A stretch of DNA of 64,000 nt. Source: Pseudorhodoferax sp. Leaf274 (lineage in GTDB: Bacteria > Pseudomonadota > Gammaproteobacteria > Burkholderiales > Burkholderiaceae_C). The notes beneath the pieces are model-generated. The model did no database searches. It worked only from the letters and a program-made list of their open reading frames with translations, and was not told the DNA's origin. The DNA lies in contig NZ_LMNA01000001.1 of NCBI RefSeq assembly GCF_001422445.1, forward strand, positions 976,735 through 1,040,734, written 5' to 3'. Of the stretch, positions 1,248 through 22,244 are shown piece by piece (position 1 is the stretch's first letter; every line of letters starts with the position of its first letter). The translations under genes and the position numbers were made by a program.

Positions 1248-2591
1248 TTACGCAGCCTTGCGCGCGGCCGCGCGGCCGGCGGGGAAGGGCAGGCCCAGGT
1301 GCTCGCGCAGGGTGCGCCCGCTGTACTCGGTGCGGAAGATGCCGCGGCGCTGCAACAGCGGCACCACGCCGTCCACGAAGTCCGTGAGGCCGTCAGGCAG
1401 GGCATCGGGCATCAGGTTGAAGCCGTCGGCCGCGCCGGCCTCGAACCACAGCGCGATGTCGTCGGCGATCTGCTCGGGCGTGCCGACGATGATGCGGTGC
1501 CCGCCGCCGCCGCCCAGTTCGCGGATCAGCTGGCGCACCGTCAGGTTCTTGCGCCGCGCCAGCGCGATGGTCGCGGCGAAGAAGGTGTGGTTGCCGTTGC
1601 CGCCCGCCGGCACCGAGAGGTTCTCGGGCAGCGGCTGGTCCAGCTGCAGCCGGTCGGGCGTCGTGCCCAGCGTGCCGGCCAGGCGCGTCAGGCTGTAGTC
1701 CCAGGGGATCGCGTCGATGAAGTCGTCGCGGCGGCGGATGGCCTCCACCTCCGTCGCGCCGATGAAGGTGGTGAGGCCGGCCAGCACCTTGACGGCATGC
1801 GGCCCGCGGCCGAGTGCCGCGGCGCGGCTGTTGAGCGCCTGGCGGTAGGCCATCGATTCCTCCAGCGACTGCGAGGCCGAGAACACCGCCTCGGCATGGC
1901 GCGAGGCCAGTTCGCGCCCGTCGGCCGAGGCGCCGGCCTGCACCAGCACCGGCCGGCCCTGCGGCGAGCGCGGCAGCGTCAGCGCGCCCTGCACGTCGAA
2001 GAACTCGCCGCGGTGTGCGATCGGGTGCACCTTGGCCGGGTCGATGAAGCGGCCGGCGGCCTTGTCGCCGATGAAGGCGTCATCCTCCCAGCTGTCCCAC
2101 AGCGCCTTGACGACGTCGGTGAACTCCGAGGCGCGGGCGTAGCGCCGGCCGTGGTCGGGCACGGCGTCCAGCCCGAAGTTGCGGGCCGAGGCCACGTCGG
2201 CCGTGGTCACCACGTTCCAGCCGGCGCGCCCGCCGCTCACATGGTCCAGAGAGGCGAAGCGGCGCGCGATGTTGTAGGGCTCGTTGTAGCTGGTCGAGGC
2301 CGTGCCGATCACGCCGATGTGCGTGGTGGCCGCTGCCACGCTGGCCAGCAGCACGGTGGGCTCCAGCGCCGTGATCGGGCGGAAGTGGATCTGGTCGATG
2401 ATGGCCGCGTTGTCGGCCAGGAACACGGCGTCGAGCTTGCCGCGCTCGGCGATCTGCGCCACGCGGATGTAGTGCTGCACGTCGATGAAGGCGCGCGGGT
2501 CGGCCTCGCGCGTGCGCCAGGCCGAGGGCACGAAGCCCGAGTGCAGGATGTTGACGTTCAGGTGCAGCTGGCGCGGGGGAAGGCTGGCCAT
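1248..2591 (-). CDS. LLM class FMN-dependent monooxygenase (NtaA/SnaA/DszA family)
   Basis: A 447-residue protein of the NtaA/SnaA/DszA/SsuD-like luciferase superfamily, which uses reduced FMN and O2 to oxidise or cleave small S- or N-containing substrates. Family hallmarks are visible: FLADNAA after the first strands, ARRFASLDHVSGGRAGWNVV in the middle, RPVLVQAGASADGRELASRHA and a C-terminal ADGFNLMPDALPDGLTDFV segment. The ATG at 2591 is one base after the stop of the MetQ-like gene (2593-2595), so the two are translationally coupled; in-frame upstream starts would lie inside that gene. Pairing with a MetQ-type binding protein points to an imported organosulfur substrate (inference). The reduced flavin must come from a separate reductase; the nitroreductase-family protein at 8789-9652 is one local candidate. 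Exact substrate is not readable from the sequence. Confidence 0.9.
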   Translation of the reverse strand: MASLPPRQLHLNVNILHSGFVPSAWRTREADPRAFIDVQHYIRVAQIAERGKLDAVFLADNAAIIDQIHFRPITALEPTVLLASVAAATTHIGVIGTASTSYNEPYNIARRFASLDHVSGGRAGWNVVTTADVASARNFGLDAVPDHGRRYARASEFTDVVKALWDSWEDDAFIGDKAAGRFIDPAKVHPIAHRGEFFDVQGALTLPRSPQGRPVLVQAGASADGRELASRHAEAVFSASQSLEESMAYRQALNSRAAALGRGPHAVKVLAGLTTFIGATEVEAIRRRDDFIDAIPWDYSLTRLAGTLGTTPDRLQLDQPLPENLSVPAGGNGNHTFFAATIALARRKNLTVRQLIRELGGGGGHRIIVGTPEQIADDIALWFEAGAADGFNLMPDALPDGLTDFVDGVVPLLQRRGIFRTEYSGRTLREHLGLPFPAGRAAARKAA

Positions 2592-2592
2592 T

Positions 2593-3582: not shown

Positions 3583-4812
3583 TCAGGCCGCGGGCTTCTT
3601 CAACCCGCAGAGTTCGTCCAGGTCCCTGAACGGCCAGTCCGACGGCGACTCGTAGCAGACGATCGCGTCGCCCGCCGCAGACTCGGCCAGGTCGATCTCG
3701 CGTGGAAACACCCGCACATCGGACGCCAGGTCGTAGAACGCCTTCACGCGCGGCGCGAGCAGGTTGGCGGTGTTCTGCGCCGTGACGACGGCCAGGCGCC
3801 GGGACTGCAGGCGCACCAGCGAGCCCGTGGGGTAGATGCCGACGGTGCGCACGAACGCCTGGAACACCTTCTGGTCGAAGTGGCCCTTCCACTGCACCAT
3901 CTGGCGCAGCGACTCCGCCGGGCTCCAGCCCCGCTTGTACGGCCGGTCGGAGGTGATGGCGTCGTACACGTCGCAGATGGCGCCCATCTTGGCCACCGTG
4001 CTGATCTGGTCGCCGGCCAGCCGGTGCGGGTAGCCGGAGCCGTCGACCTTCTCGTGGTGGTGCAGGCACACGTCCAGCACCACCGGGCCGGCGCCGCCAC
4101 CCTCGACCAGCAACTCGTGGCCGCGCAGCGGGTGGTTGCGCATCACGGCGAACTCGAGGTCCGACAGCTTGCCGGGCCGGTTCAGGATCTCCAGCGGCAT
4201 GAGCGCCTTGCCCACGTCGTGCAGCATGCCGGCCAGGCCCACCTTCTTGAGCAGGCGTTCGTTCAGCCCCAGGTTGCGGCCCAGCGCGATCATCAGGGCG
4301 CAGACGGCCACCGAATGCATGTAGGTGTACTCGTCGTGGCGTTTCAGGCGCGCCACGCTGATGAGGGCGTCCGGCTTGGCGATCACCGACTGGCAGATGT
4401 CGTCGACCATGCTCTCGCAGCCCGGCAGGTCGAGCGCCTTGCCGAGGCGGGCGTCCGAGAACATCGAGGCGATCCGGGGCAGGGAGCGGTGGATCAGCTC
4501 GACGGCCTTGTCCACCGCGTTGTCGGCATCCCCGAACGGCGCCAGCAGCGGCGCCGGCATCGTGGCGTAGCGTTCGAGCTCCTGTTCGGCCGTGGCCCTG
4601 GCCTCGGCTTGCGACAACCCGGCGTCGACGTCCAGGCCCTTGGCGGTGTCGATCCACAGTTCCGGGATCCCCGATTCGCGCACCTTCCTCAGCTGGGCAT
4701 CGGTGGCGACGAGGAACTTGGCGCGCCAGAAGGGGTGGTCGATCCACGAGCCGCAGAACTCGTGGACGAACATGCCCAGGCCCAGCTGGGCCGTCGTGAT
4801 CTTCTTCAGCAT
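3583..4812 (-). CDS. HD-GYP domain protein (cyclic-di-GMP phosphodiesterase), DUF3391 N-terminus
   Basis: A 409-residue cytosolic protein. Residues 1 to about 60 match the DUF3391-type N-terminal domain that often precedes HD-GYP (MFVHEFCGSWIDHPFW). The HD-GYP domain spans about 150-330: the HD pair is in GMLHDVGKALMP near residue 198, and the GYP signature is HHHEKVDGSGYP near 251-262, so the metal-binding and GYP residues appear intact and c-di-GMP hydrolysis is expected. The ATG at 4812 opens MLKKITTAQL; the same frame is open further upstream but only as read-through of the antisense of the next gene. It lies between SfnB-type genes and the MetQ-LLM pair on the same strand, with gaps of 131 and 165 bp, so cotranscription is possible but a functional link with sulfur uptake is not evident. 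Confidence 0.92.
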   Translation of the reverse strand: MLKKITTAQLGLGMFVHEFCGSWIDHPFWRAKFLVATDAQLRKVRESGIPELWIDTAKGLDVDAGLSQAEARATAEQELERYATMPAPLLAPFGDADNAVDKAVELIHRSLPRIASMFSDARLGKALDLPGCESMVDDICQSVIAKPDALISVARLKRHDEYTYMHSVAVCALMIALGRNLGLNERLLKKVGLAGMLHDVGKALMPLEILNRPGKLSDLEFAVMRNHPLRGHELLVEGGGAGPVVLDVCLHHHEKVDGSGYPHRLAGDQISTVAKMGAICDVYDAITSDRPYKRGWSPAESLRQMVQWKGHFDQKVFQAFVRTVGIYPTGSLVRLQSRRLAVVTAQNTANLLAPRVKAFYDLASDVRVFPREIDLAESAAGDAIVCYESPSDWPFRDLDELCGLKKPAA

Positions 4813-4943: not shown

Positions 4944-6197
4944 TCAGAACGCGCCGGTGGTCGGCGGCGGCTCGCCCTTGAGGTGCCAGGCGCCGGCCGC
5001 CGCGGCCTTCCACTGGCGCGGGTTGTGGTTGGCCACGGTGCGCGCGTTGCGCCAGTGGCGGTCCAGGTTGTGACGCCGGTCGGTGGCCGAGGCGCCGCCC
5101 ACGTCGAACGCGAGTTCCGAGGCCTGCAGCGCCGCGGCCACCGCGAAGTGCTGGGCCTGGGCGATCTCCACCGAGGCCCGGGTCAGCGCTTCCTCGCTGA
5201 GCTGCTCGGCCCAGGCGGCGTCCAGCGCCGATGCGGCGCGCAGCACCGTGGCCTCGGCCGCATAGGCCTGGGCGGCGATCTGGCCCACGGCCTCGCGCAC
5301 ATAGGGGTCGTCCACCGAGGCCTGGGCGCTGCTGTGGCGGATCGGGCGCGCGTGCTTCTGCGCGAAGTGCACGGCGTCGGCCAGCGCGTTGCGCGCGATG
5401 CCGGCCTCCACCGCCGCCAGGATCAGCTGGTACAGCGGCGTGACGGGGTTGCGCTTCTCGCGCGAGAAGTGGCCCGAGCGCACCTCGCCGGCCAGCACCT
5501 GCGTGTCGGTGAAGCGCGTGGTGCCGCTGGCCGTCAGGCGCTGGCCCGCGGTGTCGAAGTCGTCCACCAGCGCCACGCCGGCACGGCCGCGCGGCACGAA
5601 GAAGGCGGTTTCCTTGCCGTCCGCGTCGAGCGCGAGCGAGGTGATCCAGTCGGCGTACAGCGCGCCGGTGCTGTAGTACTTGGTGCCGTTCACGCGGTAG
5701 TGGTCGCCGTCGCGCAGGATGCGCGCGGCCGTGGAACCGTGCGCGCCGCCGCGCTCCAGCCCGCCGTTGCCCAGGATGTGGCCCGCCAGGAGCCGGCCGA
5801 ACCACAGCTGGCGCGCGGCCTCGTCGTTGCCGGCCAGCAGGCTCTCGATGAAGCCGTAGTTGGGCCGCAGCGCCTGCGCGATGTTGGAGTCCACCGCCGC
5901 CAGGTCGACCAGGAAGCGGACCACGTCGTGGATGGAGCCGCCCGGCCCGCCGTAGGCCTGGGGGATGCGGAAGGTCAGGAGGCCGGCCTCGGCGATCTGC
6001 CGCACCAGCGCATAGGGCAGCGCGCGTGCGCTCTCGCGCGCGGCCGCGCCTTCGGCCACCTGCGGCAGCAGGGCCTGCGCACGTGCGAACAGCACGGCGG
6101 CGTCGGCGGCCGGCGGCAGGGCCTGGCCCAGCGGCGCGGGGTGGGGATTGGCGGTGTCTGCGAGCAGGGGGCTGGCGGGTTCTGCGAGGGAGCTCAT
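4944..6197 (-). CDS. SfnB/DszC-type acyl-CoA dehydrogenase-fold monooxygenase (paralog 1)
   Basis: A 417-residue flavoprotein of the acyl-CoA dehydrogenase fold, in the branch containing SfnB, DszC and related FMNH2-dependent S-oxidising enzymes. Visible family marks: RIPQAYGGPGGS near residue 78, GTKYYSTGALYADW in the middle beta domain, RLTASGTTRF, and the C-terminal LDRHWRNARTVANHNP helix motif. Known DszC relatives oxidise sulfides to sulfoxides and sulfones with reduced flavin; the substrate here is unknown. It is the most downstream of three tandem paralogs (4944, 6242, 7572). No Shine-Dalgarno is seen: the 44 bp before the ATG are a pyrimidine tract on the coding strand, so translation may depend on coupling with the upstream gene. 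Confidence 0.88.
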   Translation of the reverse strand: MSSLAEPASPLLADTANPHPAPLGQALPPAADAAVLFARAQALLPQVAEGAAARESARALPYALVRQIAEAGLLTFRIPQAYGGPGGSIHDVVRFLVDLAAVDSNIAQALRPNYGFIESLLAGNDEAARQLWFGRLLAGHILGNGGLERGGAHGSTAARILRDGDHYRVNGTKYYSTGALYADWITSLALDADGKETAFFVPRGRAGVALVDDFDTAGQRLTASGTTRFTDTQVLAGEVRSGHFSREKRNPVTPLYQLILAAVEAGIARNALADAVHFAQKHARPIRHSSAQASVDDPYVREAVGQIAAQAYAAEATVLRAASALDAAWAEQLSEEALTRASVEIAQAQHFAVAAALQASELAFDVGGASATDRRHNLDRHWRNARTVANHNPRQWKAAAAGAWHLKGEPPPTTGAF

Positions 6198-6241: not shown

Positions 6242-7465
6242 TCAGGCCGTGCCGACGCGGTAGAAGGTCGGCGGCGGCGTGCCGTTGACGGCGTAGTCGC
6301 CCGCCTGGCGCTCGCGGTAGACGCGCGGGTTGTGCGATGCGATGGTGCGCGCGTTGCGCCAGTAGCGGTCCAGCCCGGCGGGGCGCAGCGCGGCCGAGGC
6401 GCCCAGTGCGTCGAACAACTGGGTGCTGGCGTCCAGCACGAGCTGCGTGACCACGGGCACGGCCTGGTCCACCTCCACGTGGGCCAGCACGTTGGCCTGC
6501 TCGCGCGTGGCGGCCTCCAGCGTGCGGGCCTGCCAGGCGTGTTCCAGCGCGCGGGCGGCCTGCTGCACGATGGCGTTGGCGCCGTAGGCCGCGCCATGCA
6601 CGAGGCCCACGACCTGCAGCACCTGCGGGTCCTGCGCGCTGCGCCCGGCATTGGCGTGGCTGTAGGTGCGCGTGCGTTCGCGCACGCGCTGCGCCAGGTC
6701 TTCGGACAGCGCCCGCGCGATGCCGGCCAGCGATGCCAGGTGCACCAGCTGGTAGTAGGCCGACGAGTAGGGAAAGCGCGCCTTGGACGGGTTGACCCAG
6801 GCCGGCTCGATGGCCACCTGGTCGAAGTGCGCCGTGCCGCTGGCCGTGAGGGCCTGGCCGAAGCCGTCCCAGTCGTCGTCGACCTGCACGCCGGGGGCCT
6901 TGCGCGGCACCAGCAGCAGCGTGGGCTGGCCGTGCTCGTCGTCGGCGGCGGTGTTGATCCAGTCCGCGAACAGCGAGCCCGTGGTGTAGAACTTGCGGCC
7001 CGACAGGCGCAGCTGGCCCTGGGCATCGCGCGTGAGTGTGGTGGCGAAGCTGCCGACCTTGGCGTCGCCCGATTCGGAGAAGCCCGAGCCGATGGTCTGC
7101 CCCTCGGCGATCCTGCCCAGCCAGTGCGCGCGGAACTCGGCGAAGTCGGAGTGCAGCACGTCCTCGGTGAAGCCGAAGTGCGCGCGCAGCGCATTGACGA
7201 CGTTGGTGTCGGCCGCGCCGAGCTCGACCAGCAGGCCGAAGAACTCCGTCAGCGTGGCGCCCGCGCCGCCCTGCTCGACCGGCAGGCGCAGCCTGGCGAA
7301 GCCTTCGGCGCGCAGCCAGTGCAGTTCCTCGTGCGGCAGGCGGTGCTGCAGGTCGCGCTCCACCGCGGTGTCGCGGATGCGCTGGAACACGGGCCGAAAG
7401 CGCTGGGCCAGGCCCTCGTAGCGGGGGCTCGGGGCGGCGCCCCAGGCAAGGTGGTGTTGGGTCAT
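6242..7465 (-). CDS. SfnB/DszC-type acyl-CoA dehydrogenase-fold monooxygenase (paralog 2)
   Basis: A 407-residue member of the same SfnB/DszC-like branch. It has RLPVEQGGAGATL near residue 63, GRKFYTTGSLFADW, QALTASGTAHFD and the terminal LDRYWRNARTIASHNP motif with a tyrosine in place of the usual histidine. The start at 7465 (MTQHHLAW) is chosen because the family N-terminus aligns there; the frame is open upstream to 7561 through low-complexity sequence without homology. A 106-bp spacer separates it from paralog 3 and contains GATATGCGC on the coding strand (7557-7565), so it may have its own promoter. Likely role: flavin-dependent S-oxidation of an organosulfur compound (family knowledge); substrate unknown. 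Confidence 0.88.
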   Translation of the reverse strand: MTQHHLAWGAAPSPRYEGLAQRFRPVFQRIRDTAVERDLQHRLPHEELHWLRAEGFARLRLPVEQGGAGATLTEFFGLLVELGAADTNVVNALRAHFGFTEDVLHSDFAEFRAHWLGRIAEGQTIGSGFSESGDAKVGSFATTLTRDAQGQLRLSGRKFYTTGSLFADWINTAADDEHGQPTLLLVPRKAPGVQVDDDWDGFGQALTASGTAHFDQVAIEPAWVNPSKARFPYSSAYYQLVHLASLAGIARALSEDLAQRVRERTRTYSHANAGRSAQDPQVLQVVGLVHGAAYGANAIVQQAARALEHAWQARTLEAATREQANVLAHVEVDQAVPVVTQLVLDASTQLFDALGASAALRPAGLDRYWRNARTIASHNPRVYRERQAGDYAVNGTPPPTFYRVGTA

Positions 7466-7571: not shown

Positions 7572-8792
7572 CTACGCGGCCTCGCGCGTGCCCACGGCCC
7601 AGTAGAAGGTCGGCCGCGTGCCGTTGAGCGCGTGGTCGCCCAGCACGCGGGCCTTGTAGATCACGGGGTTGTGCGAGGCCAGCGCGCGCGCATTGCGCCA
7701 GTGCCGGTCCAGCCGCCGGTCTTCCTGCAGGGCCGATGCGCCGCCCACGTCGAACAGCCGCGTGGCCGCGCCCAGCACCGCATCGGTCACGTGCACCTGG
7801 GCGCGCGAGGCGCGCAGTTCCACGTCGATGAGCAGCGCGTCCGCGATCGGCTCGCCCGCCAGGCGCAGCCGGTCCACGGTGTCCAGGCCGGCGGCCACGT
7901 CGCGCACGGCGAGCTGGGCCGCATAGGCCGTGGCGCCCAGCTGGCCGATCACCTGCTGGATCAGCGGGTCCTCGCGCGGCACCGCGCCGCTGCCGTGGCT
8001 GAACACGCGCCGGCGCGGCTGCACGAAGCGCACGGCATCGCGTTCCACGGCACGCGCGATGCCGGCCAGCGTGGCGATGTGGAACAGCTGGAACAGGGCC
8101 GTGAGCGGCGTGGCGATGTTGCGTGCCACGTCGACCACGGCGTCGGCGTCCACCTGCACGCCGCGCAGCCGCGTCGTGCCCGAGGCCGTCAGCCGCTGGC
8201 CGAAGCCGCGCCAGTCGTCCACGCACTCCACGCCGGGCGCGTCGGTGCGCACCAGTGCCAGGCTGCGCTGGATGTGGGGGTCGGCGCCGTCGCGCTGGGC
8301 CGTCACCTGCACCCAGTCGGCGTACAGCGTGCCGGTGCTGTAGTACTTGTCGCCGTCCAGCACGTAGCCCGTGCCCTGGGCGGTGAGCGTCGTCTGCAGG
8401 CTGCCCACGGCACCCTCGCCGAGCTCGGTTGTCGCGTTGCCGAAGATGGCGCCCTCGGCCACGCGGCGCAGCCAGGGCGCGCGGCGTTCGGCGGGAAACT
8501 CGATCAGCACGCGCTCGACGAAGCCGAAGTGCGCGCGCAGCGCCTGCGGCAGGTTGGAGTCGGCCTCGGCCAGTTCCACCAGCAGCGCGAACAGTTGCGA
8601 GGGCGTGGCGCCCAGCCCGCCGTATTCCACGGGCACGCGCAGCGCGCCGAAGCCGGCCTCGCGCAGCCAGCCGATGGCATCGTGGGCGAGTTCGCGGCCG
8701 TGCTCGCGCTCGGCGGCGCGTTCGGCGATGCGCGCGAAGATGGGGCGAAAGCGCGCGGCGAAGGCGGCGTCCTGGTCGGTGGCGAAGGTCAT
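7572..8792 (-). CDS. SfnB/DszC-type acyl-CoA dehydrogenase-fold monooxygenase (paralog 3)
   Basis: A 406-residue SfnB/DszC-like protein. Motifs in order: RVPVEYGGLGATPSQ near residue 58, LDGDKYYSTGTLYADW, RLTASGTTRLRG, and LDRHWRNARALASHNP at the C-terminus. Its ATG overlaps the TGA of the upstream nitroreductase-family gene by 4 bp (ATGA), so the two are translationally coupled. That arrangement, a flavin-using oxidase next to an NAD(P)H-dependent flavoprotein, fits a two-component monooxygenase whose reductase supplies FMNH2 (inference). It shares the fold but is clearly diverged from its neighbours, so the tandem copies look like old duplications with different substrates and not a recent amplification. 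Confidence 0.88.
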   Translation of the reverse strand: MTFATDQDAAFAARFRPIFARIAERAAEREHGRELAHDAIGWLREAGFGALRVPVEYGGLGATPSQLFALLVELAEADSNLPQALRAHFGFVERVLIEFPAERRAPWLRRVAEGAIFGNATTELGEGAVGSLQTTLTAQGTGYVLDGDKYYSTGTLYADWVQVTAQRDGADPHIQRSLALVRTDAPGVECVDDWRGFGQRLTASGTTRLRGVQVDADAVVDVARNIATPLTALFQLFHIATLAGIARAVERDAVRFVQPRRRVFSHGSGAVPREDPLIQQVIGQLGATAYAAQLAVRDVAAGLDTVDRLRLAGEPIADALLIDVELRASRAQVHVTDAVLGAATRLFDVGGASALQEDRRLDRHWRNARALASHNPVIYKARVLGDHALNGTRPTFYWAVGTREAA

Positions 8793-9751: not shown

Positions 9752-10827
<1,076 letters not shown>

Positions 10828-10831
<4 letters not shown>

Positions 10832-12095: not shown

Positions 12096-12170
12096 CCGCA
12101 TATCGATGGTCGAAATGCTTCTGAGGCAGCAGGCCGCCGCGGCCGCGGCATGCGCTGGCCGCATATCGAT
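12096..12170. promoter_or_regulatory. Two direct copies of CCGCATATCGAT, 63 bp apart
   Basis: The 12-mer CCGCATATCGAT occurs at 12096-12107 and again at 12159-12170. The start-to-start distance of 63 bp is six helical turns, so both copies face the same side of the DNA. They lie 45 and 108 bp upstream of the SfnB start at 12051 and contain the ATATGCG core (on the minus strand) found at other sulfur promoters here. Likely binding sites for a transcription factor, possibly CysB/SsuR-like; the factor is inferred. Confidence 0.55.
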
Positions 12171-12287: not shown

Positions 12288-12303
12288 TGGCATGGCGCCT
12301 GCA
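12288..12303 (+). promoter_or_regulatory. Sigma-54 promoter for the Dpp/Gsi-type importer operon
   Basis: TGGCATGGCGCCTGCA matches the -24/-12 consensus TGGCACG-N4-TTGCW at all but two conserved positions, with the essential GG and GC dinucleotides at correct spacing. Transcription should start near 12313, leaving a leader of about 30 nt before the ATG at 12344. A sigma-54 activator gene lies in the divergent operon, which strengthens the call. Confidence 0.65.
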
Positions 12304-12343: not shown

Positions 12344-14107
<1,764 letters not shown>

Positions 14108-14117: not shown

Positions 14118-15776
14118 ATGCAAGAACACGACGACACCACCGCCCCGGCCGACCTGCAACGCCGCCACCTGCTGGGCCTGGCCGGCGCCCTGCTGTTCGG
14201 CGGCCTCGCCGCGCAGGACGCGCTGGCGCTCACACAGGCCCTGCCCGACACCGAGCAGGGCGCGCAGCGCGGCGGCGCCATCAGCGCGCTGGTGCACCCC
14301 GAGCCGCCCACGCTGGCCTTCTTCGTCAACACCGCCACGCCCACGCGGCTGGTGGCCTCCAAGATCTTCGACGGCCTGCTCGACTACGGCCCCGACCTCA
14401 AGCCGCGCGCGCAGCTGGCCGAGCGCTGGGAACTCTCGGCCGACGGCCTGCAGCTGCGCCTGTGGCTGCGCAAGAACGCCTTCTGGCACGACGGCAAGCC
14501 GCTCACCGCGGCCGACGTGAAGTTCTCGGCCGAGGAAGTCTGGAAGAAGCACGCGCCCACCGGCCGCCGCGTGTTCCAGAACCTCGTGCGCGTGGAGACG
14601 CCCGACGCGCATGCCGTGGTGCTGCACCTGTCCAAGCCCGCGCCCGTGGTGCTCAACGCGCTGGACGTGGTGTCCGCCCCCGTGCTGCCGCGCCATCTCT
14701 ACGAGGGCACGGACATCCCGAACAACCCCCACAACAACAAGCCCGTGGGCTCGGGCCCCTTCGTGTTCAAGGAGTGGTCGCGCGGCAGCCACATCGCGCT
14801 GGAGCGCTTCGACAAGTACTGGGCCCCCGGCCTGCCCTACCTGGACAAGCTGACCTTCCGCGTGATCCCCGACGTGGCCGGCCGCGCCGCGGCGCTGGAG
14901 ACCGGCACCGTGCAGTACGGCGAGCGCAACCCGGTCACCTTCGCCGATGCCGACCGCCTGGCCCGGAGCGACAAGCTGGTCGTCAGCACGGCCGGCTACA
15001 ACGGCTTTGCGGCCACGCTGTGGCTGATCCCCAACCTGCGCGACCCCATCCTGGGCAAGCTCGAGGTGCGCCAGGCCCTGCTGCACGCGATCAACCGCGA
15101 CGTCCTGGTCAAGACCGTGTGGGGCGGCTACGCGGCGCCGGCCACGGGGCCGGTGTCCTCGCAGCTCAAGAGCTTCTACACGCCCGACACGCAGCAGTAC
15201 CCGTTCGACCGCGCCAAGGCCGAGAAGCTGCTCGACGCGGCGGGCTTTCCGAAGAAGGCCGACGGTTTCCGCTTCAAGCTCACGCACGCCTTCATCCCGT
15301 TCGGCGACGATTACCGGCGCACGGGCGAGTTCGTGCGCCAGTCGCTGCGCGCGGTCGGCATCGACCTGGAACTGAAGGCGCAGGACCTGGCCAGCTGGAC
15401 CCGAGACGTGTTCGCCGACTACAACTACCAGCTGGTCAGCTCCTGGGGTGTGAACTGGGCCGACCCGCAGCTGGGGCTGGAGCAGCACTACTGGTCCAAG
15501 GCCGAGAGCAAGGGCACGCCCTGGCAGAACGCCTCCGGCTACGCCAGCGCCGAGACCGACCGCGTGCTCGAAGCCGCCCAGGTCGAGCGCGACCCGGCGC
15601 GCCGCGTGCAGCTCTACAACGAGCTGCAAAGGCTCGTGCAGAAGGACCTGCCGCTGCTGCACCTGTTCGAGTACCGCTGGTTCGGCGTCTGGGACAAGCG
15701 GCTGCGCAACGTGACCGACACCTACAACAACAGCCAGAGCAACTTCGCGCGCGTCTGGCTGGACGGCGGCGCATGA
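14118..15776 (+). CDS. ABC transporter substrate-binding protein, family 5 (Dpp/Opp/Gsi type)
   Basis: A 552-residue periplasmic binding protein of the SBP_bac_5 class. The N-terminus QRRHLLGLAGALLFGGLA is a twin-arginine-like or long Sec signal ending near AQDALA. Typical features are the LAERWELSADGLQLRLWLRK segment, the WHDGKPLTAADVKFS motif, VGSGPFVFKEW and a C-terminal YNELQRLVQKDLPLLHLFE. GAGGAGGA lies 6-13 bases before the ATG at 14118. Such proteins bind peptides, glutathione or opines; a sulfur-bearing ligand is inferred only from the operon. Its stop overlaps the permease start by 4 bp. Confidence 0.93.
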   Translation: MQEHDDTTAPADLQRRHLLGLAGALLFGGLAAQDALALTQALPDTEQGAQRGGAISALVHPEPPTLAFFVNTATPTRLVASKIFDGLLDYGPDLKPRAQLAERWELSADGLQLRLWLRKNAFWHDGKPLTAADVKFSAEEVWKKHAPTGRRVFQNLVRVETPDAHAVVLHLSKPAPVVLNALDVVSAPVLPRHLYEGTDIPNNPHNNKPVGSGPFVFKEWSRGSHIALERFDKYWAPGLPYLDKLTFRVIPDVAGRAAALETGTVQYGERNPVTFADADRLARSDKLVVSTAGYNGFAATLWLIPNLRDPILGKLEVRQALLHAINRDVLVKTVWGGYAAPATGPVSSQLKSFYTPDTQQYPFDRAKAEKLLDAAGFPKKADGFRFKLTHAFIPFGDDYRRTGEFVRQSLRAVGIDLELKAQDLASWTRDVFADYNYQLVSSWGVNWADPQLGLEQHYWSKAESKGTPWQNASGYASAETDRVLEAAQVERDPARRVQLYNELQRLVQKDLPLLHLFEYRWFGVWDKRLRNVTDTYNNSQSNFARVWLDGGA

Positions 15777-16768
15777 AGGCCCTGGTCCGCCGGCTGGCCC
15801 AGCTGGCCGGTGTCGTGCTCGCCACCGCCGTGCTGAACTTCGCCTTGCTCAAGGCGCTGCCCGGCGACCTCGTCGACGTGATCGCCAGCGAGAGCGGCAG
15901 CGTCACGGCCGGGTACGTGGCCGAGCTGCGCCAGGCCTACGGGCTGGACCGCGGCACGGGCGAGCAGCTGGTGGCCTACCTGGGCCGCATGGTGCGCGGC
16001 GATGTGGGCTACTCGTTCCGCTTCAACGAGCCCGTGCTGGGGCTGGTGCTGGACCGGCTCGGCCCCACGCTGGCGCTGGTGGGCGCGGCGCTGGCGCTGT
16101 CGGTGGTGGTGGGCGTGCTGGTCGGCGTGGCCGCGGCACGCCGGCCGCACGGCCTGCTGGACACGGTGCTGTCGGCGCTGGCCACGCTGGGCTACTCCGC
16201 GCCCATGTTCTGGACCGCGCTGATGCTGATCGTGCTGTTCGGCGTGCAGCTGCAATGGCTGCCCATCGGCGGGCTGCGCAACATCGAGGCCGCGCACCAG
16301 GGCCTGCGGCTGTGGGGCGACTACCTGCAGCACCTGGTGCTGCCCGTGCTCACGCTGGCCATCTACTACGTGGCCATCTATGCGCGGCTCGCGCGCGCGG
16401 CCATGGTCGAGACGCTGGCCGAGGACTACATCCGCACGGCCCGCGCCAAGGGCGCGCGCGAAGGCCGCGTGCTGTTCGGCCATGCGCTGCGCAACGCCGT
16501 GCTGCCGGTGCTGACCATGCTGGGCCTGCAGAGCAGCGCGCTGCTGGGCGGCTCCATCGTCGTGGAGACCGTGTTCGCCTGGCCCGGCCTGGGCCAGCTG
16601 TCGTTCGAGGCCATCAAGAGCCGCGACATCCCGGTGCTGCTGGCCGTGCTGCTGGCCAGCGGCGTGCTCGTGGTGCTGGGCAACGCGCTGGTCGACCTGC
16701 TGCAGGCGCGGCTGGACCCGCGCGTGCGCGCCGTGCCGGACCGGGCGCCGGCGGGGGCACTGCCATGA
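15773..16768 (+). CDS. ABC transporter permease (DppB/GsiC type)
   Basis: A 331-residue inner-membrane permease of the BPD_transp_1 family, DppB branch. The first segment (VLATAVLNFALLKALPGDLVD) is the conserved N-terminal helix with the PGD motif; about six membrane segments follow. The cytoplasmic EAA loop that contacts the ATPase is visible as EDYIRTARAKGAREGRVLFG near residues 218-237. ATGA overlaps join it to the genes on both sides, so the whole importer is a tightly coupled unit. Confidence 0.93.
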   Translation: MKALVRRLAQLAGVVLATAVLNFALLKALPGDLVDVIASESGSVTAGYVAELRQAYGLDRGTGEQLVAYLGRMVRGDVGYSFRFNEPVLGLVLDRLGPTLALVGAALALSVVVGVLVGVAAARRPHGLLDTVLSALATLGYSAPMFWTALMLIVLFGVQLQWLPIGGLRNIEAAHQGLRLWGDYLQHLVLPVLTLAIYYVAIYARLARAAMVETLAEDYIRTARAKGAREGRVLFGHALRNAVLPVLTMLGLQSSALLGGSIVVETVFAWPGLGQLSFEAIKSRDIPVLLAVLLASGVLVVLGNALVDLLQARLDPRVRAVPDRAPAGALP

Positions 16769-17601
16769 CACGCTGGTACCTGCAGCCGTCCATCCTGCTC
16801 GGCGGCGGCCTCGTGCTGGCGGTGCTGGCCGGCGCGCTCGCGGCCGGCTGGCTGTACCCGGGCGACCCGCTGGACATGGTGGGCGCGCCCTTCACCTGGC
16901 CGGGCCAGGACGCCACGCTGCCGCTGGGCACCGACCTCATGGGCCGCGACCTGGCGGCCGGCCTGCTGCACGGCGCGCGCGTGTCGCTGCTGGTCGGCCT
17001 GTCGGCGGCGGCCATCGCGCTCGTGATCGGCATCGCCGTGGGCGCGGCGGCGGGCTTCTACCGTGGCTGGGTCGACGCGGTGCTCACGCGAACGACCGAG
17101 TTCTTCCAGACCATCCCGGCCTTCCTGCTGGCCATCATCCTCGTGGCGGTGCTCAAGCCCACGGTGGGCACCATCGTGTTCGCGCTGGGCGTGACCTCGT
17201 GGACCAGCGTGGCGCGGCTGGTGCGTGCCGAGTTCATCACGCTGCGCGAGCGCGAGTTCGTGCGCGCCAGCGTGGCGCTGGGCGCGGGCGATGCCCACCT
17301 GATCCTGCGCGAGATCCTGCCCAACGCCTGGACGCCCGTGGTCGTGTCCACGGGGCTGCTCGTGGCCAACGCCATCCTGTCGGAGGCCGGGCTGTCTTTC
17401 CTGGGGCTGGGCGATCCCAACCGCGTGAGCTGGGGCTCCATGGTGGGCCTGGGCCGCGACGCGCTGCGCACCGCCTGGTACATGACGGCCATCCCGGGGC
17501 TGGCCATCGTGCTCACGGTGCTGGGCCTGAACCTGCTCAGCGACGCGCTGCACGCCGCGCTGAACCCGCGCCTGCGCCGCCAGCGGCGGGGCACCGCCTG
17601 A
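16765..17601 (+). CDS. ABC transporter permease (DppC/GsiD type)
   Basis: A 278-residue permease, the second half of the importer channel. The N-terminal helix is followed by PLGTDLMGRDLAAGLLHGAR, the hallmark of DppC-like permeases, then five more helices and the EAA loop REFVRASVALGAGDAHLILR near residue 162-181. It ends with SFLGLGDPNRVSWGSMVG, also typical. It is shorter than most DppC proteins because the N-terminal cytoplasmic tail is brief. The downstream SfnB-type gene starts 13 bp after the stop. Confidence 0.93.
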   Translation: MTRWYLQPSILLGGGLVLAVLAGALAAGWLYPGDPLDMVGAPFTWPGQDATLPLGTDLMGRDLAAGLLHGARVSLLVGLSAAAIALVIGIAVGAAAGFYRGWVDAVLTRTTEFFQTIPAFLLAIILVAVLKPTVGTIVFALGVTSWTSVARLVRAEFITLREREFVRASVALGAGDAHLILREILPNAWTPVVVSTGLLVANAILSEAGLSFLGLGDPNRVSWGSMVGLGRDALRTAWYMTAIPGLAIVLTVLGLNLLSDALHAALNPRLRRQRRGTA

Positions 17602-18763: not shown

Positions 18764-18765
18764 CG

Positions 18766-19983
18766 ATGAACCTGTCGCTCTCTCCCGCACCGCCCTGCGG
18801 CGCCACGCCGCGCGCGCAGCCGCCTGCCCACGTGCCCGGGCGGCTGGCCGACGACGCCGCGGCCGTGGCGGCTGCGCACCGCCTGGCCGCGCTGTTCGCC
18901 CCCGAGGCCGCGCTGCGCGACCGCACACGCCGCCTGCCCTGGGCCGAACTCGATGCCTTCGTGGCGAGCGGCCTGTGGGCCATCTCGGTGCCGCGTGCCT
19001 TCGGCGGCACGGGCGTGTCCAGCGCCACGCTGGCCGAAGTGGTCGCCGCGGTCTCGGCGGCCGACGGCTCGCTGGGCCAGATCCCGCAGAACCACTTCTT
19101 CGCGCTGGAGGTGCTGCGCCGCCATGGCAGCGCCGCGCAGCAAGGCCTGCTGTTCGGCCGCGTGCTGGCGGGCGAACGCCTGGGCAACGCGCTGGCCGAG
19201 ATCGGCCACAAGGACTTCCAGCGCCGCACGCAACTCGTGCCCGCGGGCGACGGCTGGCGGCTGGACGGCCGCAAGTTCTACTGCACCGGCGCGCTGTACG
19301 CGCACTGGATTCCCACGCTGGCGCTGCGCACCGGGCACGGGCAGCCGGGCCAGGTGCTCGTGTTCGTGCCGCGCGATGCGCAGGGCGTCACCGTCACCGA
19401 CGACTGGGACGGCTTCGGCCAGCGCGTGACGGGCAGCGGCTCTGTAGCGTTCGACGGCGTGCATGTGCGGGACGAATGGGTCGTGCCCTACGCGCCCAGC
19501 GCCGAGGAACCGACCACCGCCGGCCCGCTGGCGCAGCTGCTGCACGCGGCCATCGACCTGGGCCTGGGGCAGGGGGCGCTCGCGGCTGCGCTGGAACTGC
19601 TGCGCCAGAACACATCGCCCGACCGGGCGCTGGCGCGGCAGGTCGGCGAGCTCGACCTGCAGCTGCGTGCCGCCCGGGCGCTCGTGCGCCGCGCGGGCGG
19701 GACCGTCGATGCCTCGCGCGCTGCGCCCGATGGGGCCAGCGTGGCCGCCGCATCGGCGGCCGTGGCCGAAGCGCGCGCGCTGACCACCACGGCCGCGCTG
19801 GCGGCGTCCGGCCAGCTGTTCGAACTGGCCGGCCCCGGCAGCGCGCAGGAGCACCTGGGCCTGGACCGCTTCTGGCGCAACGTGCGCACGCACACGCTGC
19901 ACGACCCGCTGCGCTGGCGCGTGCATGCCGTGGGCGACTACCACCTCAATGGCAAGGCGCCGCCGCGGCACGGCGCCATCTGA
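18766..19983 (+). CDS. SfnB/DszC-type acyl-CoA dehydrogenase-fold monooxygenase (paralog 6)
   Basis: A 405-residue SfnB/DszC-like protein with all usual marks: SVPRAFGGTGVSSATLAEVV near residue 76, LDGRKFYCTGALYAHW in the middle domain, QRVTGSGSVAFDGV, and LDRFWRNVRTHTLHDP at the C-terminus. It starts 3 bp after paralog 5, so the two may form a pair. The N-terminal 27 residues are proline/alanine-rich and probably flexible. It lies between the importer and the MetQ/LLM pair, which places an S-oxidising step (family knowledge for DszC; substrate unknown) between uptake and FMN-dependent C-S cleavage. Confidence 0.88.
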   Translation: MNLSLSPAPPCGATPRAQPPAHVPGRLADDAAAVAAAHRLAALFAPEAALRDRTRRLPWAELDAFVASGLWAISVPRAFGGTGVSSATLAEVVAAVSAADGSLGQIPQNHFFALEVLRRHGSAAQQGLLFGRVLAGERLGNALAEIGHKDFQRRTQLVPAGDGWRLDGRKFYCTGALYAHWIPTLALRTGHGQPGQVLVFVPRDAQGVTVTDDWDGFGQRVTGSGSVAFDGVHVRDEWVVPYAPSAEEPTTAGPLAQLLHAAIDLGLGQGALAAALELLRQNTSPDRALARQVGELDLQLRAARALVRRAGGTVDASRAAPDGASVAAASAAVAEARALTTTAALAASGQLFELAGPGSAQEHLGLDRFWRNVRTHTLHDPLRWRVHAVGDYHLNGKAPPRHGAI

Positions 19984-20019
19984 CCGTTTTCTCCTCTCGC
20001 CTTCACCGGAATCCAAGAA

Positions 20020-20871
20020 ATGAACGAGCACTTTCCATCGCGCCGCCAGGTCCTGCAACTCGCCGGCGGCGCCAGCCTGCTGGCCGGCCTGCCCGTGCCG
20101 TCTGCGCTGGCAGCCCTCAAGGAGCAGCCCGGCACCACCAAGGTTCTCAAGGTCGGCGTGACCACGGGCCCGCACGAACAGGTGTTCGAGCAGGTGCGCC
20201 GGATCGCCGAGCGCGACTACGGGCTGAAGATCCAGCTCGTGCCCTTCACCGACTACAGCCGGCCCAATGCCGCGCTGGACGCGGGCGACCTGGACGCCAA
20301 CAGCTTCCAGCACCGGCCCTTCCTCGCGGCCCAGATCCGCGCGCGCGGCTACAGGATCGTGGGCTTCGGCCGCACCTGGATCGGGCCCATCGCGATCTAC
20401 TCCAAGAAGTTCAAGGGCTTCGCCGACCTGCCCGAGGGCGCGCGCATCGCCATCCCCAACGATCCGGCCAACGAGAGCCGCGTGCTGCTGCTGTTGCAGA
20501 AGGCCGGCGCCATCACGCTCAAGACCGGCATCGACCCTGTGGCCGGCGTCAACGCCACGCCGCGCGACATCGTGGAGAACCCGAGGAAGTTCCGCTTCGT
20601 CGAGATCGAGGCCGCCCAGCTGCCGCGCACGCTGGACGACACCGACGCCTCGGCCATCAACGCCGACTACGCCAACAAGGCCGGCCTGAACCCGGCCAAG
20701 GACGCGATCCTGCTGGAGGACAAGGACGGCCCCTACGCCTGCCTGGTGGCGGTGCGCGAGCAGGACAAGGACCAGCCCTGGGTGCAGCAGCTGGTCAAGG
20801 CCTACCAGACCGACGAGGTGCGCGAGTACATCGTGAAGACCTTCGCCGGCGGCGTCATTCCAGCGTTCTGA
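20020..20871 (+). CDS. MetQ/NlpA-family ABC substrate-binding protein
   Basis: A 283-residue NlpA/MetQ-type binding protein. The N-terminus SRRQVLQLAGGASLLAGL resembles a twin-arginine signal and ends near SALA. Family segments: ALDAGDLDANSFQHRPFLA, the IAIPNDPANESRVLLLLQ loop, AAQLPRTLDDTDASAINADY, and the C-terminal VKAYQTDEVREYIVKTF. It has no ATPase or permease beside it and probably uses the MetNI pair at 44778-46494 or another system. Its TGA shares one base with the ATG of the LLM monooxygenase, the same MetQ-then-LLM pairing as at 2593-3417, so the two pairs are related modules on opposite strands. Confidence 0.9.
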   Translation: MNEHFPSRRQVLQLAGGASLLAGLPVPSALAALKEQPGTTKVLKVGVTTGPHEQVFEQVRRIAERDYGLKIQLVPFTDYSRPNAALDAGDLDANSFQHRPFLAAQIRARGYRIVGFGRTWIGPIAIYSKKFKGFADLPEGARIAIPNDPANESRVLLLLQKAGAITLKTGIDPVAGVNATPRDIVENPRKFRFVEIEAAQLPRTLDDTDASAINADYANKAGLNPAKDAILLEDKDGPYACLVAVREQDKDQPWVQQLVKAYQTDEVREYIVKTFAGGVIPAF

Positions 20872-22244
20872 TGAGCACGCCGAAGAAGATCCTGCTCAAC
20901 GCGTTCAACATGAACTGCGTGGGCCACATCAACCACGGACTGTGGACGCACCCGCGCGACCGCTCGGCCGACTACAACACGCTGGAACACTGGACCGGCA
21001 TCGCGCGCACGCTGGAGCGGGGCCTGTTCGACGGGCTGTTCATCGCCGACATCGTGGGCGTGTACGACATCTACCAGGGTGGCGTGGACCTCACGCTGCG
21101 CGAGTCCATCCAGCTGCCCGTGAACGACCCGCTGCTGCTGGTGCCGGCCATGGCCGCGGCCACGAAGCACCTGGGCTTCGGCGTCACGGTCAACCTGGGC
21201 TACGAGGAGCCCTACCTGCTGGCGCGGCGCTTCTCCACGCTGGACCACCTCACGCGCGGGCGCATCGGCTGGAACATCGTGACGGGCTACCTGGACAGCG
21301 CGGCGCGCGCCATGGGCCGCGCCACCCAGCTGGCGCACGACGAGCGCTACGACCGCGCCGACGAGTACCTCGACGTGCTCTACCAGCTCTGGGAAGGCAG
21401 TTGGGAAGAGGGCGCCGTGCTGCGCGACAAGGCTGGCCGGCGCTTCGCCGATCCGGCCAAGGTGCACCCGGTGCGCCACCACGGCAAGTACTACCAGGTC
21501 CAGGGCTACCACCTGGCCGAGCCCTCGCCGCAGCGCACTCCGGTGCTCTACCAGGCCGGCAGCTCGGGCCGGGGCCAGCGCTTCGCGGCGCGGCATGCGG
21601 AGTGCGTGTTCATCGCACCGCCGAACCAGGAGGTGGCGCGCACCGGCGTGCGCGCGCTGCGCGAGCAACTCGTGCAGGCCGGCCGCCGGGGCGACGACAT
21701 CAAGGTCTTCGCAGGCATCAACGTGGTGGTGGGCCGCACCGAACGCGAGGCGCGCGAGAAGCACGCCGAGTACCTGCGCCATGCGAGCCCCGAATCGGGC
21801 CTGGCGCACTTCGCGGCTGGCACCGGCATCGACTTCGCGCGCTACGGGCTGGACGAGCCCATCCCCTACGGCAGCACCAACGGCATCGAGTCGGCCGCGC
21901 GCACGGCCGAGCAGCAGGGCTGGACACGGCGGCGCATGCTCGATCTGTTCGCGCTCGGCGGACGCTTTCCGACCCTCGTGGGCGACCCGGGCCAGGTGGC
22001 CGACGCGCTGCAGGACTGGGTGGACGCCACGGGCATCGACGGCTTCAACCTCGCGCGCACCGTGGTGCCCGAGAGCTACGAGGACTTCGTCGACCTGGTC
22101 GTGCCGGAACTGCAGAGCCGCGGGCTCTACAAGACCGCCTACGAGGAGGGCACGCTGCGTTCGCGCCTGTTCGGCCAAGGCCACCACCTGCCGGCGCGGC
22201 ATGCGGCCCACGCCTTTCGCCGCACCGTGCAAGCCACGGCCTGA
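20871..22244 (+). CDS. LLM class FMN-dependent monooxygenase, DszA/NtaA-like
   Basis: A 457-residue member of the NtaA/SnaA/DszA group. Marks: ARTLERGLFDGLFIADIVGV near residue 46, LLVPAMAAATKHLGFGVT, ARRFSTLDHLTRGRIGWNIV, TPVLYQAGSSGRGQRFAARH and TGIDGFNLARTVVPESYEDF. DszA itself cleaves dibenzothiophene sulfone with FMNH2, and SfnG cleaves dimethylsulfone; the family therefore fits the final desulfurisation step after S-oxidation by SfnB/DszC-like enzymes of this operon. The start overlaps the preceding stop (TGATG). The exact substrate cannot be read. It is the last gene of the sigma-54-linked operon; a 6-bp GC hairpin without T-run (22296-22311) follows. Confidence 0.9.
   Translation: MSTPKKILLNAFNMNCVGHINHGLWTHPRDRSADYNTLEHWTGIARTLERGLFDGLFIADIVGVYDIYQGGVDLTLRESIQLPVNDPLLLVPAMAAATKHLGFGVTVNLGYEEPYLLARRFSTLDHLTRGRIGWNIVTGYLDSAARAMGRATQLAHDERYDRADEYLDVLYQLWEGSWEEGAVLRDKAGRRFADPAKVHPVRHHGKYYQVQGYHLAEPSPQRTPVLYQAGSSGRGQRFAARHAECVFIAPPNQEVARTGVRALREQLVQAGRRGDDIKVFAGINVVVGRTEREAREKHAEYLRHASPESGLAHFAAGTGIDFARYGLDEPIPYGSTNGIESAARTAEQQGWTRRRMLDLFALGGRFPTLVGDPGQVADALQDWVDATGIDGFNLARTVVPESYEDFVDLVVPELQSRGLYKTAYEEGTLRSRLFGQGHHLPARHAAHAFRRTVQATA

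What the first reader, a model, noticed from the sequence alone, without database searches (positions are those of the whole stretch)
1248..22244. Two divergent blocks with six SfnB/DszC-like and two LLM monooxygenases around one sigma-54 regulator
Seen: six separate proteins with the LDR-x-WRN-x-R-type C-terminal motif (at 4944, 6242, 7572, 10828, 17615, 18766), two intact FMN-dependent LLM enzymes, a nitroreductase, two MetQ-like receptors and a full Dpp/Gsi-type importer in 21 kb. Known: SfnB/DszC relatives S-oxidise and DszA/SfnG relatives cleave sulfones with FMNH2. Inference: the locus is a complete uptake-oxidation-cleavage pathway for one or several organosulfur compounds that may not be described. 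Paralogs differ enough to suggest different substrates.
Basis: partly seen in the sequence, partly recalled or inferred. Interest (0 to 1): 0.8.

Follow-up and report, generated by a model that had tools for sequence, protein, structure and literature searches.

The report
Expanded sulfur-scavenging flavin monooxygenase cluster
A bacterium related to Pseudorhodoferax carries an unusually large gene cluster that, judged from sequence, lets it pull sulfur out of organic compounds when sulfate is scarce; the parts are known kinds, but the set and most of the substrates are not described.

Summary
Six SfnB/DszC-type (group D) proteins, two NtaA/DmoA-type LLM monooxygenases, a nitro/flavin reductase, two MetQ/NlpA receptors, a Gsi/Dpp-type importer and a sigma-54 activator lie where described. 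Best reading: a sulfate-starvation organosulfur-scavenging locus built round a recognisable msuC-sfnR pair. The protein at 10828 is an MsuC orthologue (67% identity) and the regulator is SfnR-like; the pair is adjacent in 79 of 80 related loci. The locus is composite: a quartet (b-a-NlpA1-LLM1) is shared by four of five congeners, and a 14.9-kb island (about 7567-22426) was found only here and in Pseudorhodoferax sp. Leaf265; its modules recur elsewhere in other orders. MsuE and MetN/MetI-like genes lie 3-5.5 kb outside the window and SsuD elsewhere, so the pathway is not complete inside the span. One of the 'six monooxygenases' (17615) has lost the flavin/oxygen-handling residues checked, yet is under purifying selection. 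The HD-GYP gene sits in a variable slot. A 14-bp element upstream of msuC has three exact copies in the genome, two here and one before a tauD-like gene. Substrates are inferred, not shown. New variant of a known kind.

The parts
1248..2591 (-). LLM1, NtaA/DmoA-family FMN monooxygenase, nearest solved relative YtnJ
   Evidence: TIGR03860 526.5 bits, cut-off 279.7; YtnJ best PDB hit 344.6 bits, 41% identity
2593..3417 (-). NlpA1, MetQ-like substrate-binding lipoprotein
   Evidence: PF03180 219 bits; TIGR00363 152 bits, under its cut-off 228.85
3583..4812 (-). HD-GYP (DUF3391 + HD_5) gene in a variable slot; not counted as part of the system
   Evidence: Pfam; slot holds other genes in two congeners and only 670 bases in two more
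4944..6197 (-). ACADa, SfnB-like group-D flavin monooxygenase
   Evidence: TIGR04022 328 bits, under cut-off; separate clade with b and c; dN/dS 0.158
6242..7465 (-). ACADb, SfnB-like group-D flavin monooxygenase
   Evidence: TIGR04022 264 bits, under cut-off; dN/dS 0.219
7572..8792 (-). ACADc, SfnB-like group-D flavin monooxygenase
   Evidence: TIGR04022 279 bits, under cut-off; dN/dS 0.070
8789..9652 (-). NfsA/NfrA/Frp-like NAD(P)H nitro/flavin reductase
   Evidence: PF00881; PDB NfrA2 136 bits, NfsA 131, Frp 109
9752..10831 (-). SfnR-like sigma-54 activator without N-terminal sensor domain
   Evidence: PF00158 from residue 39; GAFTGA at residue 107; adjacent to msuC in 79 of 80 loci
10828..12051 (-). 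ACADd = MsuC (alkanesulfinate monooxygenase) orthologue
   Evidence: 6u76 580 bits, 67% identity, MsuC clade 99*
12097..12107 (+). CGCATATCGAT element, copy 1, between the divergent operons
12160..12170 (+). CGCATATCGAT element, copy 2
12288..12303 (+). sigma-54-like -24/-12 sequence TGGCATGGCGCCTGCA, about 40 bp before the importer operon (weak evidence)
   Evidence: 2 mismatches (not enriched in the window: 10 found, 16.5 expected); conserved but for one base in Leaf265
12344..14107 (+). GsiA-like two-domain importer ATPase
   Evidence: two ABC_tran stretches; YejF/GsiA models, under cut-offs
14118..15776 (+). SBP_bac_5 solute receptor (GsiB/DppA type)
   Evidence: PF00496 281 bits; GsiB model 154 of 594
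15773..16768 (+). importer permease B
   Evidence: PF00528, Opp2B/GsiC-type models under cut-offs
16765..17601 (+). importer permease C
   Evidence: PF00528
17615..18763 (+). ACADe, divergent SfnB-like paralogue without the flavin/oxygen-handling residues
   Evidence: residues; dN/dS 0.289; fold kept
18766..19983 (+). ACADf, bona fide SfnB-family oxidoreductase
   Evidence: TIGR04022 506 bits, cut-off 430.9; SfnB clade 95*
20020..20871 (+). NlpA2, MetQ/NlpA lipoprotein
   Evidence: TIGR00363 259 bits, cut-off 228.85
20871..22244 (+). LLM2, NtaA/DmoA-family FMN monooxygenase, nearest solved relative DmoA
   Evidence: TIGR03860 557 bits; DmoA 509 bits, 51% identity
7567..22426 (.). accessory island: shared with Leaf265 (to about 22229), absent from G003, G004 and G005
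   Evidence: blastn breakpoints

Best explanation
A composite sulfate-starvation locus for sulfur scavenging from organosulfur compounds, controlled by a CysB/SfnR-type cascade. Inferred flow: thioethers or their conjugates enter through the Gsi-type importer and the MetQ-like receptors (with the MetN/MetI-like pair just outside the window). SfnB-type enzymes (f, and probably a, b, c) use FMNH2 to make sulfoxides and sulfones. The LLM enzymes cleave C-S bonds, giving sulfinates (LLM2, DmoA side) or, for LLM1 (YtnJ/CmoJ side), perhaps dealkylating a sulfoxide. MsuC (d) turns sulfinate into sulfonate and SsuD, elsewhere in the genome, releases sulfite. MsuE, and possibly the NfsA/Frp-like protein, supplies FMNH2. 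The set arose by joining a msuC-sfnR-centred island to a b-a-NlpA1-LLM1 quartet. Shown here: gene content, families, phylogeny, synteny, breakpoints, active-site state, selection, the shared DNA element. Inferred: substrates, order of steps, regulation, direction of the gain or loss.
For: MsuC orthology. msuC-sfnR adjacency in 79 of 80 loci (gap 0-165 bases; the exception, L075, ends 138 bases after msuC); the 80 are the loci most similar to ACADd out of 543. SfnB model passed by f, and SfnB or DszC best for all six. LLM families. MsuE over cut-off at window -5460..-4945, MetN/MetI-like genes beside it, SsuD over cut-off on C27. The same kinds of parts co-occur elsewhere: G156 has, in coordinate order, SfnR-MsuC-MsuE-ACADc-LLM2-NlpA-ACADf-ACADf-MetI-MetN-NlpA-NlpA relatives; Aquitalea L051, Pseudomonas L030 and G021 have msuC-sfnR close to LLM2, ACADf and MetNI relatives; a Paracoccus plasmid is annotated SfnB-SfnB-LLM-MetI-ABC ATPase-NlpA-NlpA-SsuD. 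Leaf265 has an SsuD over cut-off beside LLM2 and a TauD in the variable slot. The element CGNATATCGATSST has three exact sites in 6.7 Mb: two here and one about 105 bp before a TauD gene. Literature: PMC13352529 (abstract, sections 22, 26, 27, 29 and passages: group-D Dms1-3 oxidise DMS and DMSO with MsuE; strong induction on DMS versus sulfate); PMC8234197 (passages); PMC11852219 (passages: sfnB 312-fold up on DBT).
Against: No expression or activity data for this organism. No SfnG over cut-off in the genome, so the described DMSO2 route is not complete here. a, b, c and e score well under the SfnB cut-off and d under those of SfnB and DszC, so most substrates are open. ACADe lacks the catalytic residues. 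TIGR03860 relatives also include enzymes that do not act on sulfur (nitrilotriacetate, EDTA, alkane, hexachlorobenzene, riboflavin). The sigma-54 site is weak, and two copies of the 11-bp element at up to one mismatch also arose in 6 of 100 shuffles of the window. The LLM2 relative of G156 has an in-frame TGA. No MsuE or MetN/MetI relative over 55% identity was seen in the 5-7 kb read past LLM1 in four congeners. No plasmid record holds most of the locus (0 of 405 with a match cover 80%). Dms1-3 sequences could not be obtained, so orthology to them is untested.
Confidence: 0.78

Rival explanations
1. Two independent pathways that merely adjoin: the genus-level quartet (b-a-NlpA1-LLM1, perhaps a CmoJ-like S-conjugate dealkylation) and a separate SfnR/MsuC island for small sulfides and sulfones, with no shared substrate flow.
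For: Quartet stands without the island in G003, G004, G005. Sharp breakpoints at 7563-7566 and 22427. LLM1 is nearer YtnJ and LLM2 nearer DmoA.
Against: In this genome and Leaf265 the quartet lies directly downstream of c on one strand (107-bp gap here), so cotranscription from the msuC promoter is possible. b and c are in one 16-row clade.
Confidence: 0.4
2. The locus serves carbon or nitrogen catabolism, or attack on a non-sulfur xenobiotic (amine, aromatic or alkane oxygenation); sulfur names are only inherited annotation.
For: LLM relatives include NTA, EDTA, alkane, hexachlorobenzene and riboflavin enzymes; group D also holds N- and C-oxygenases such as DnmZ, KijD3 and HsaA.
Against: DszC, TdsC and MsuC are the top solved relatives of d and f, well ahead of DnmZ and KijD3; MsuC, SfnR, MsuE, SsuD and TauD neighbours here and in relatives are sulfur genes.
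Confidence: 0.08
3. The six are true acyl-CoA dehydrogenases.
For: They share the acyl-CoA dehydrogenase Pfam domains.
Against: SfnB or DszC is the best curated model for all six; N129, S163 (or Thr) and H391 of DszC are kept in a, c, d, f, and all but N129 in b.
Confidence: 0.02

Closest known systems
msuEDC-sfnR / sfn genes of Pseudomonas (dimethyl sulfone to sulfite)
   Same: MsuC orthologue next to an SfnR-like sigma-54 activator; MsuE nearby; SsuD in the genome. In P. putida an sfnAB pair and ABC transporters lie in the sfn region (PMC8234197, passages).
   Different: No SfnG or MsuD among the genes typed in the cluster and no SfnG over cut-off in the genome; five further group-D genes, two NtaA/DmoA-type LLMs and a Gsi-type importer added.
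Dms1/Dms2/Dms3-MsuE DMS pathway of Acinetobacter baylyi ADP1 (PMC13352529)
   Same: Several redundant group-D FMNH2 enzymes feeding a sulfone-sulfinate-sulfonate route.
SfnB-SfnB-LLM-MetNI-NlpA module (annotated in Paracoccus sp. MA, NZ_CP087599.1)
   Same: SfnB genes, an LLM2-type enzyme and NlpA together (relatives also in G156, G021, Aquitalea).
   Different: Here the importer next to them is Gsi/Dpp-type, the MetN/MetI-like pair is more than 20 kb away outside the window, and the first of the two SfnB-like genes is degenerate at the active site.
CmoO/CmoJ S-alkylcysteine salvage of Bacillus (PMC10863075, passages)
   Same: LLM1's best solved match is YtnJ, which I recall to be CmoJ.
   Different: 41% identity only; no N-acetyltransferase or deacetylase among the genes typed by Pfam; the S-oxidation would be by group-D enzymes.
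dszABC 4S pathway
   Same: Group-D S-oxidation followed by LLM C-S cleavage, as logic.
   Different: ACADd far below the DszC cut-off (348 vs 850 bits); no DszB-like gene among the genes typed in the locus.

Membership tests
SfnB family (TIGR04022) | score over curated cut-off 430.9 bits: ACADf | tested here: met
   506 bits
SfnB family (TIGR04022) | score over curated cut-off 430.9 bits: ACADa, b, c, d, e | tested here: not met
   a 328, b 264, c 279, d 286.5, e 258
MsuC (methanesulfinate monooxygenase) | clade with the solved MsuC and next to sfnR | tested here: met
   ACADd: 67% identity to 6u76, MsuC clade 99*, sfnR adjacent as in 79 of 80 loci
MsuC (methanesulfinate monooxygenase) | FMNH2-dependent oxidation of methanesulfinate | not testable with these tools
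   needs enzyme assay
DszC equivalog (NF043015) | score over 850 bits | tested here: not met
   ACADd 348 bits
SfnR | sigma-54 activator with GAFTGA and no N-terminal sensor domain, beside msuC (definition recalled) | tested here: met
   PF00158 starts at residue 39 of 359; GAFTGA at residue 107; adjacency. No SfnR model among the 25 NCBIfam matches; best is NorR under its cut-off
SfnR | activates sfn targets under sulfate starvation | not testable with these tools
   only a weak sigma-54-like site
NtaA/DmoA family (TIGR03860) | score over 279.7 bits | tested here: met
   LLM1 526.5, LLM2 556.6
DMSO2 pathway SfnG-MsuC-MsuD/SsuD | an SfnG over its cut-off in the genome | tested here: not met
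   best 167 of 382.95 bits, at a place that scores 232 bits with the SsuD model, also under cut-off
GsiABCD glutathione importer | curated GsiA and GsiB models passed | tested here: not met
   GsiA 540 of 1077, GsiB 154 of 594 bits; architecture alone agrees
MetQ/NlpA lipoproteins (TIGR00363) | score over 228.85 bits: NlpA2 | tested here: met
   259 bits
MetQ/NlpA lipoproteins (TIGR00363) | score over 228.85 bits: NlpA1 | tested here: not met
   152 bits, though PF03180 is passed
group-D flavin monooxygenase active site | DszC N129, S163, H391 equivalents: a, c, d, f | tested here: met
   d all; a, c, f with Thr for S163. Role of His391 from PMC11134501 (passages); roles of the others recalled
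group-D flavin monooxygenase active site | DszC N129, S163, H391 equivalents: b | tested here: inconclusive
   H391 kept, Thr for S163, Ser for N129
group-D flavin monooxygenase active site | DszC N129, S163, H391 equivalents: e | tested here: not met
   gap, Pro and Arg at these columns, shared with Leaf265

The most novel reading that the evidence does not exclude
The island encodes an undescribed route for larger imported thioether conjugates (through the peptide-type importer), in which ACADe is a catalytically silent SfnB paralogue that works as a partner or regulator of ACADf, and the whole is under a dedicated starvation operator (CGNATATCGATSST) shared with a tauD-like gene.
Probability: 0.2. 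Interest if true: 0.65.

Novelty: new variant of a known kind. Interest (0 to 1): 0.4.

Why it matters
SfnB-type enzymes are common in annotation, but among those met in this work only MsuC, DszC/TdsC and, since 2026, the Dms enzymes have assigned sulfur substrates. A locus with at least three clades of them and two different LLM partners is a compact test set for which group-D enzyme goes with which C-S-cleaving partner. It also shows that one apparent monooxygenase gene is probably not a monooxygenase, a caution for counting such genes in metagenomes.

Tried and rejected
True acyl-CoA dehydrogenases: rejected. Nitroreductase as the sole FMN reductase: doubtful once MsuE was found outside the window. 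HD-GYP as part of the system: unlikely because the slot varies among congeners. Mobile-element origin by composition or tRNA: no support; island GC 0.734 against 0.685-0.773 in the other segments measured, and no tRNA in 1-30000. The locus as a plasmid-borne whole: 405 plasmid records match parts, none covers 80%. Sigma-54 consensus scan: not enriched. The 11-bp element at up to 2 mismatches upstream of msuC in the 80 loci: 37 sites against 17.8 expected from the rest of the loci, about two-fold, most of them weak; of 13 loci then listed for the exact TATCGAT core, 8 have it and 5 (L015, L022, L027, L029, L031) do not. In five named genomes the exact 14-mer occurs three times, each upstream of msuC, and not in two of them (L024, L022); those three sites were already known, so the scan adds only that these genomes hold no other exact copy. 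Finding an Acinetobacter genome to test Dms orthology failed: 1 of 276 genomes (our own) matched at 1e-140, but at most six candidates per genome were scored, so this is a lower bound. ACADa outside the genus: 0 of 149 others at 1e-90, at most 12 candidates scored each. ACADe could not be placed in the tree (long branch).

Rows dropped in the tree: duplicates of window genes and of L009, domains under 90 bits or of 300 residues or fewer, then rows over 82% identical (229 domains; 200 rows, then 102).

Full report
Observation. The two divergent blocks are real. On the minus strand lie msuC-like ACADd, an SfnR-like regulator, an NfsA/Frp-like reductase, ACADc, ACADb, ACADa, an HD-GYP gene, NlpA1 and LLM1; on the plus strand a two-domain ATPase, SBP_bac_5, two permeases, ACADe, ACADf, NlpA2 and LLM2. 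The plus-strand genes are tightly packed, three neighbouring pairs with overlapping ends (coordinates). The genome has 57 PF08028 matches, but only seven SfnB-like proteins at E<=1e-70, six of them here; the next best match is at 7e-29. The seventh lies on C7 between two LLM genes. Among 40 related genomes 11 (our own among them) have a match at 1e-40, and besides our own only G002 has six within 21 kb (from the rows; at most 35 candidates per genome were scored).

Families. NCBIfam: best model SfnB for a, b, c, e, f, passed only by f; DszC for d, not passed. Solved structures: d matches MsuC 6u76 with 580 bits and DszC with 325; f matches DszC with 157 bits and MsuC with 137. LLM1 matches YtnJ best (345 bits) and LLM2 DmoA (509) and LadA (489); identities 41% to YtnJ and 51% to DmoA. 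That YtnJ is CmoJ is recalled.

Tree. In 102 rows (after dropping near-copies) all six lie on the SfnB/DszC/MsuC side of a 99* split from seven other acyl-CoA-dehydrogenase-like rows, six of them from the same genome. d sits in a 32-row clade with the solved MsuC (99*), f in a 20-row clade (95*) that I call the SfnB clade because rows over that model's cut-off lie in it, and a, b, c in a third clade of 19 rows (100*), with a next to a Pseudomonas delhiensis row. e is a long branch that the program warns may be misplaced. The outgroup rows are not curated true dehydrogenases, so the split alone is not proof; carry that point.

Active sites. Using DszC numbering, a, c, d, f keep N129, Ser or Thr at 163, T213, S215 and H391; b has Ser for N129; e has a gap at N129, Pro at 163 and lacks T213, S215 and H391. 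Of 96 non-window rows, five lack H391 and all five are outgroup rows. PMC11134501 (passages) states that His391 of DszC assists protonation of O2 on the way to the flavin C4a-hydroperoxide; the roles of the other residues are recalled. The loss in e is shared with Leaf265. dN/dS against Leaf265 is 0.289 for e, 0.172 for f, 0.063 for d, 0.070 for c, 0.158 for a, 0.219 for b, with no stops; the importer ATPase is higher than e, at 0.332. So e is constrained, if less so than the other five. Its model (pLDDT 80.6, five sequences) finds TdsC, DszC and MsuC first. The low-confidence stretch 187-196 falls at the TxSG loop. I conclude that e is probably not a flavin monooxygenase, though it is a maintained protein.

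Architecture and history. msuC-sfnR adjacency is found in 79 of 80 loci of Pseudomonas, Burkholderia, Variovorax and others, the loci most similar to ACADd; of these 80 only Leaf265 has the full set that the 10-kb flanks could show. G002 is taken to be Leaf265: the 15,160 overlapping bases of L107 and L009 are identical. In congeners G003, G004, G005 the order b-a-(slot)-NlpA1-LLM1 stands without the island at 88-94% protein identity. DNA similarity to the window stops at 7563-7566, short paralogue matches apart, and in G004 and G005 resumes at 22427. In G003-G005 two Crp/Fnr-like genes follow b (one of them typed by Pfam); in Leaf265 the same kind of pair lies beyond the island, which there carries an extra SsuD (565 bits, cut-off 518). 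The slot between a and NlpA1 holds HD-GYP here; in Leaf265 an aminotransferase, an amino-acid importer (my reading of the sequence) and TauD; in G003 a TctC-type receptor (my reading); in G004 and G005 it is only 670 bases, too short for HD-GYP, with a longest stop-free stretch of 187 codons. G001, the fifth congener, has no SfnB-like match at 1e-40. Insertion in two lineages and loss in the others are both possible.

Recurring modules. LLM2 relatives at 1e-120 occur in 9 of 150 genomes of the order including our own (at most 11 candidates scored each). In coordinate order, G156: relatives of SfnR-MsuC-MsuE-ACADc(59%)-LLM2(64%, with one in-frame TGA)-NlpA-ACADf(58%)-ACADf(46%)-MetI-MetN-NlpA-NlpA. 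G079: LLM2-GsiA-permeases-ACADf(46%)-SBP. G081: LLM2 with ACADf- and ACADb-like neighbours. Not all fit: in G142, G093 and G029 no group-D gene was found beside LLM2 in the stretches read (G029's is 4.5 kb), and G128 was not read. On plasmids, LLM2 relatives are in 351 records; a Caballeronia plasmid has ACAD-LLM and, on the other side of the record's start, SBP-permease-permease-NlpA-ACAD, a short SBP and NlpA; Paracoccus sp. MA has SfnB-SfnB-LLM-MetI-ABC ATPase-NlpA-NlpA-SsuD. So the window's set is a variant assembly of recurring parts.

Missing pieces. MsuE (247 bits, cut-off 212.5) lies at window -5460..-4945, divergent from MetN-like (289 of 499.7 bits) and MetI-like (184 of 212) genes and an ARD-type gene. 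In the four congener stretches read, which reach 5.1-6.9 kb past LLM1, no MsuE or MetN/MetI relative over 55% identity was seen (one search printed only those over 55%), so their link to the quartet is not supported by synteny. SsuD (605 bits, cut-off 518) is on C27. No SfnG passes.

Regulation. The element CGCATATCGAT occurs twice between the divergent operons; ATATCGAT occurs nowhere else in the 64 kb, though two matches at up to one mismatch also arose in 6 of 100 shuffles. CGNATATCGATSST has three exact sites in the 6.7-Mb genome; the third is about 105 bp before a TauD gene (PF02668, 259 bits) in the region that holds the C7 organosulfur genes. The reversed-pattern control gave two matches at up to one mismatch, against nine for the pattern. 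In five named genomes the 14-mer with CCT occurs three times, always before msuC, and not in two of them; these sites were known before, so the scan adds that no other exact copy exists there. Whether CysB, SfnR or another protein binds it is unknown. The SfnR-driven sigma-54 start of the importer operon is only suggested.

Literature. A search for Pseudorhodoferax with sulfur and monooxygenase listed two papers, neither on this by title and start of abstract. The other listings, judged likewise, showed no paper on such a cluster; they cover open PMC text only. PMC13352529 was seen as abstract, sections 22, 26, 27, 29 and passages; PMC8234197, PMC10863075, PMC11134501, PMC11852219 and PMC12581299 as passages. 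They show that group-D enzymes oxidise DMS and DMSO with MsuE, that such genes are induced on DMS or DBT in other bacteria, and that organosulfur genes rise under sulfur starvation in P. aeruginosa. [quoted passage not shown]

Verdict. A new variant of a known kind: well supported as a sulfur-scavenging locus, with substrates open, one probable pseudoenzyme and a candidate operator worth testing.

Noticed in passing
window 3583-4812: HD-GYP gene in the sulfur block; the same slot carries TauD, an importer and an aminotransferase in Leaf265, a TctC-like receptor in G003, and only 670 bases in G004 and G005.
   Followed up: partly
L119 8953-11091 (window -1047 to 1091, minus strand): Hybrid PAS/HisKA/receiver kinase left of LLM1; the listed ORF window 48-1178(+) lies antisense to it, has no Pfam or NCBIfam hit and is probably spurious.
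   Followed up: partly
window 22606-23664: CCP_MauG-type di-haem peroxidase gene to the right of the island, on the minus strand.
   Followed up: no
window 22470-22595: 41-codon ORF in DNA about 83% conserved in G004 and G005; nature unknown.
   Followed up: no
L117 1179-18086 (G000 C7): Second organosulfur region: TauD, an acyl-CoA-dehydrogenase-like gene, SBP_bac_5 receptors, LLM-ACAD-LLM and an importer, with the third exact copy of the DNA element in front of TauD.
   Followed up: partly
L119 6892-7494: ARD-type (acireductone dioxygenase family) gene beside the MetN/MetI-like pair outside the window.
   Followed up: no
G021 (contigs C71, C104, C119 and others): A genome of the same family with 21 SfnB-like matches spread over many contigs, the most in the 40-genome sample.
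   Followed up: partly
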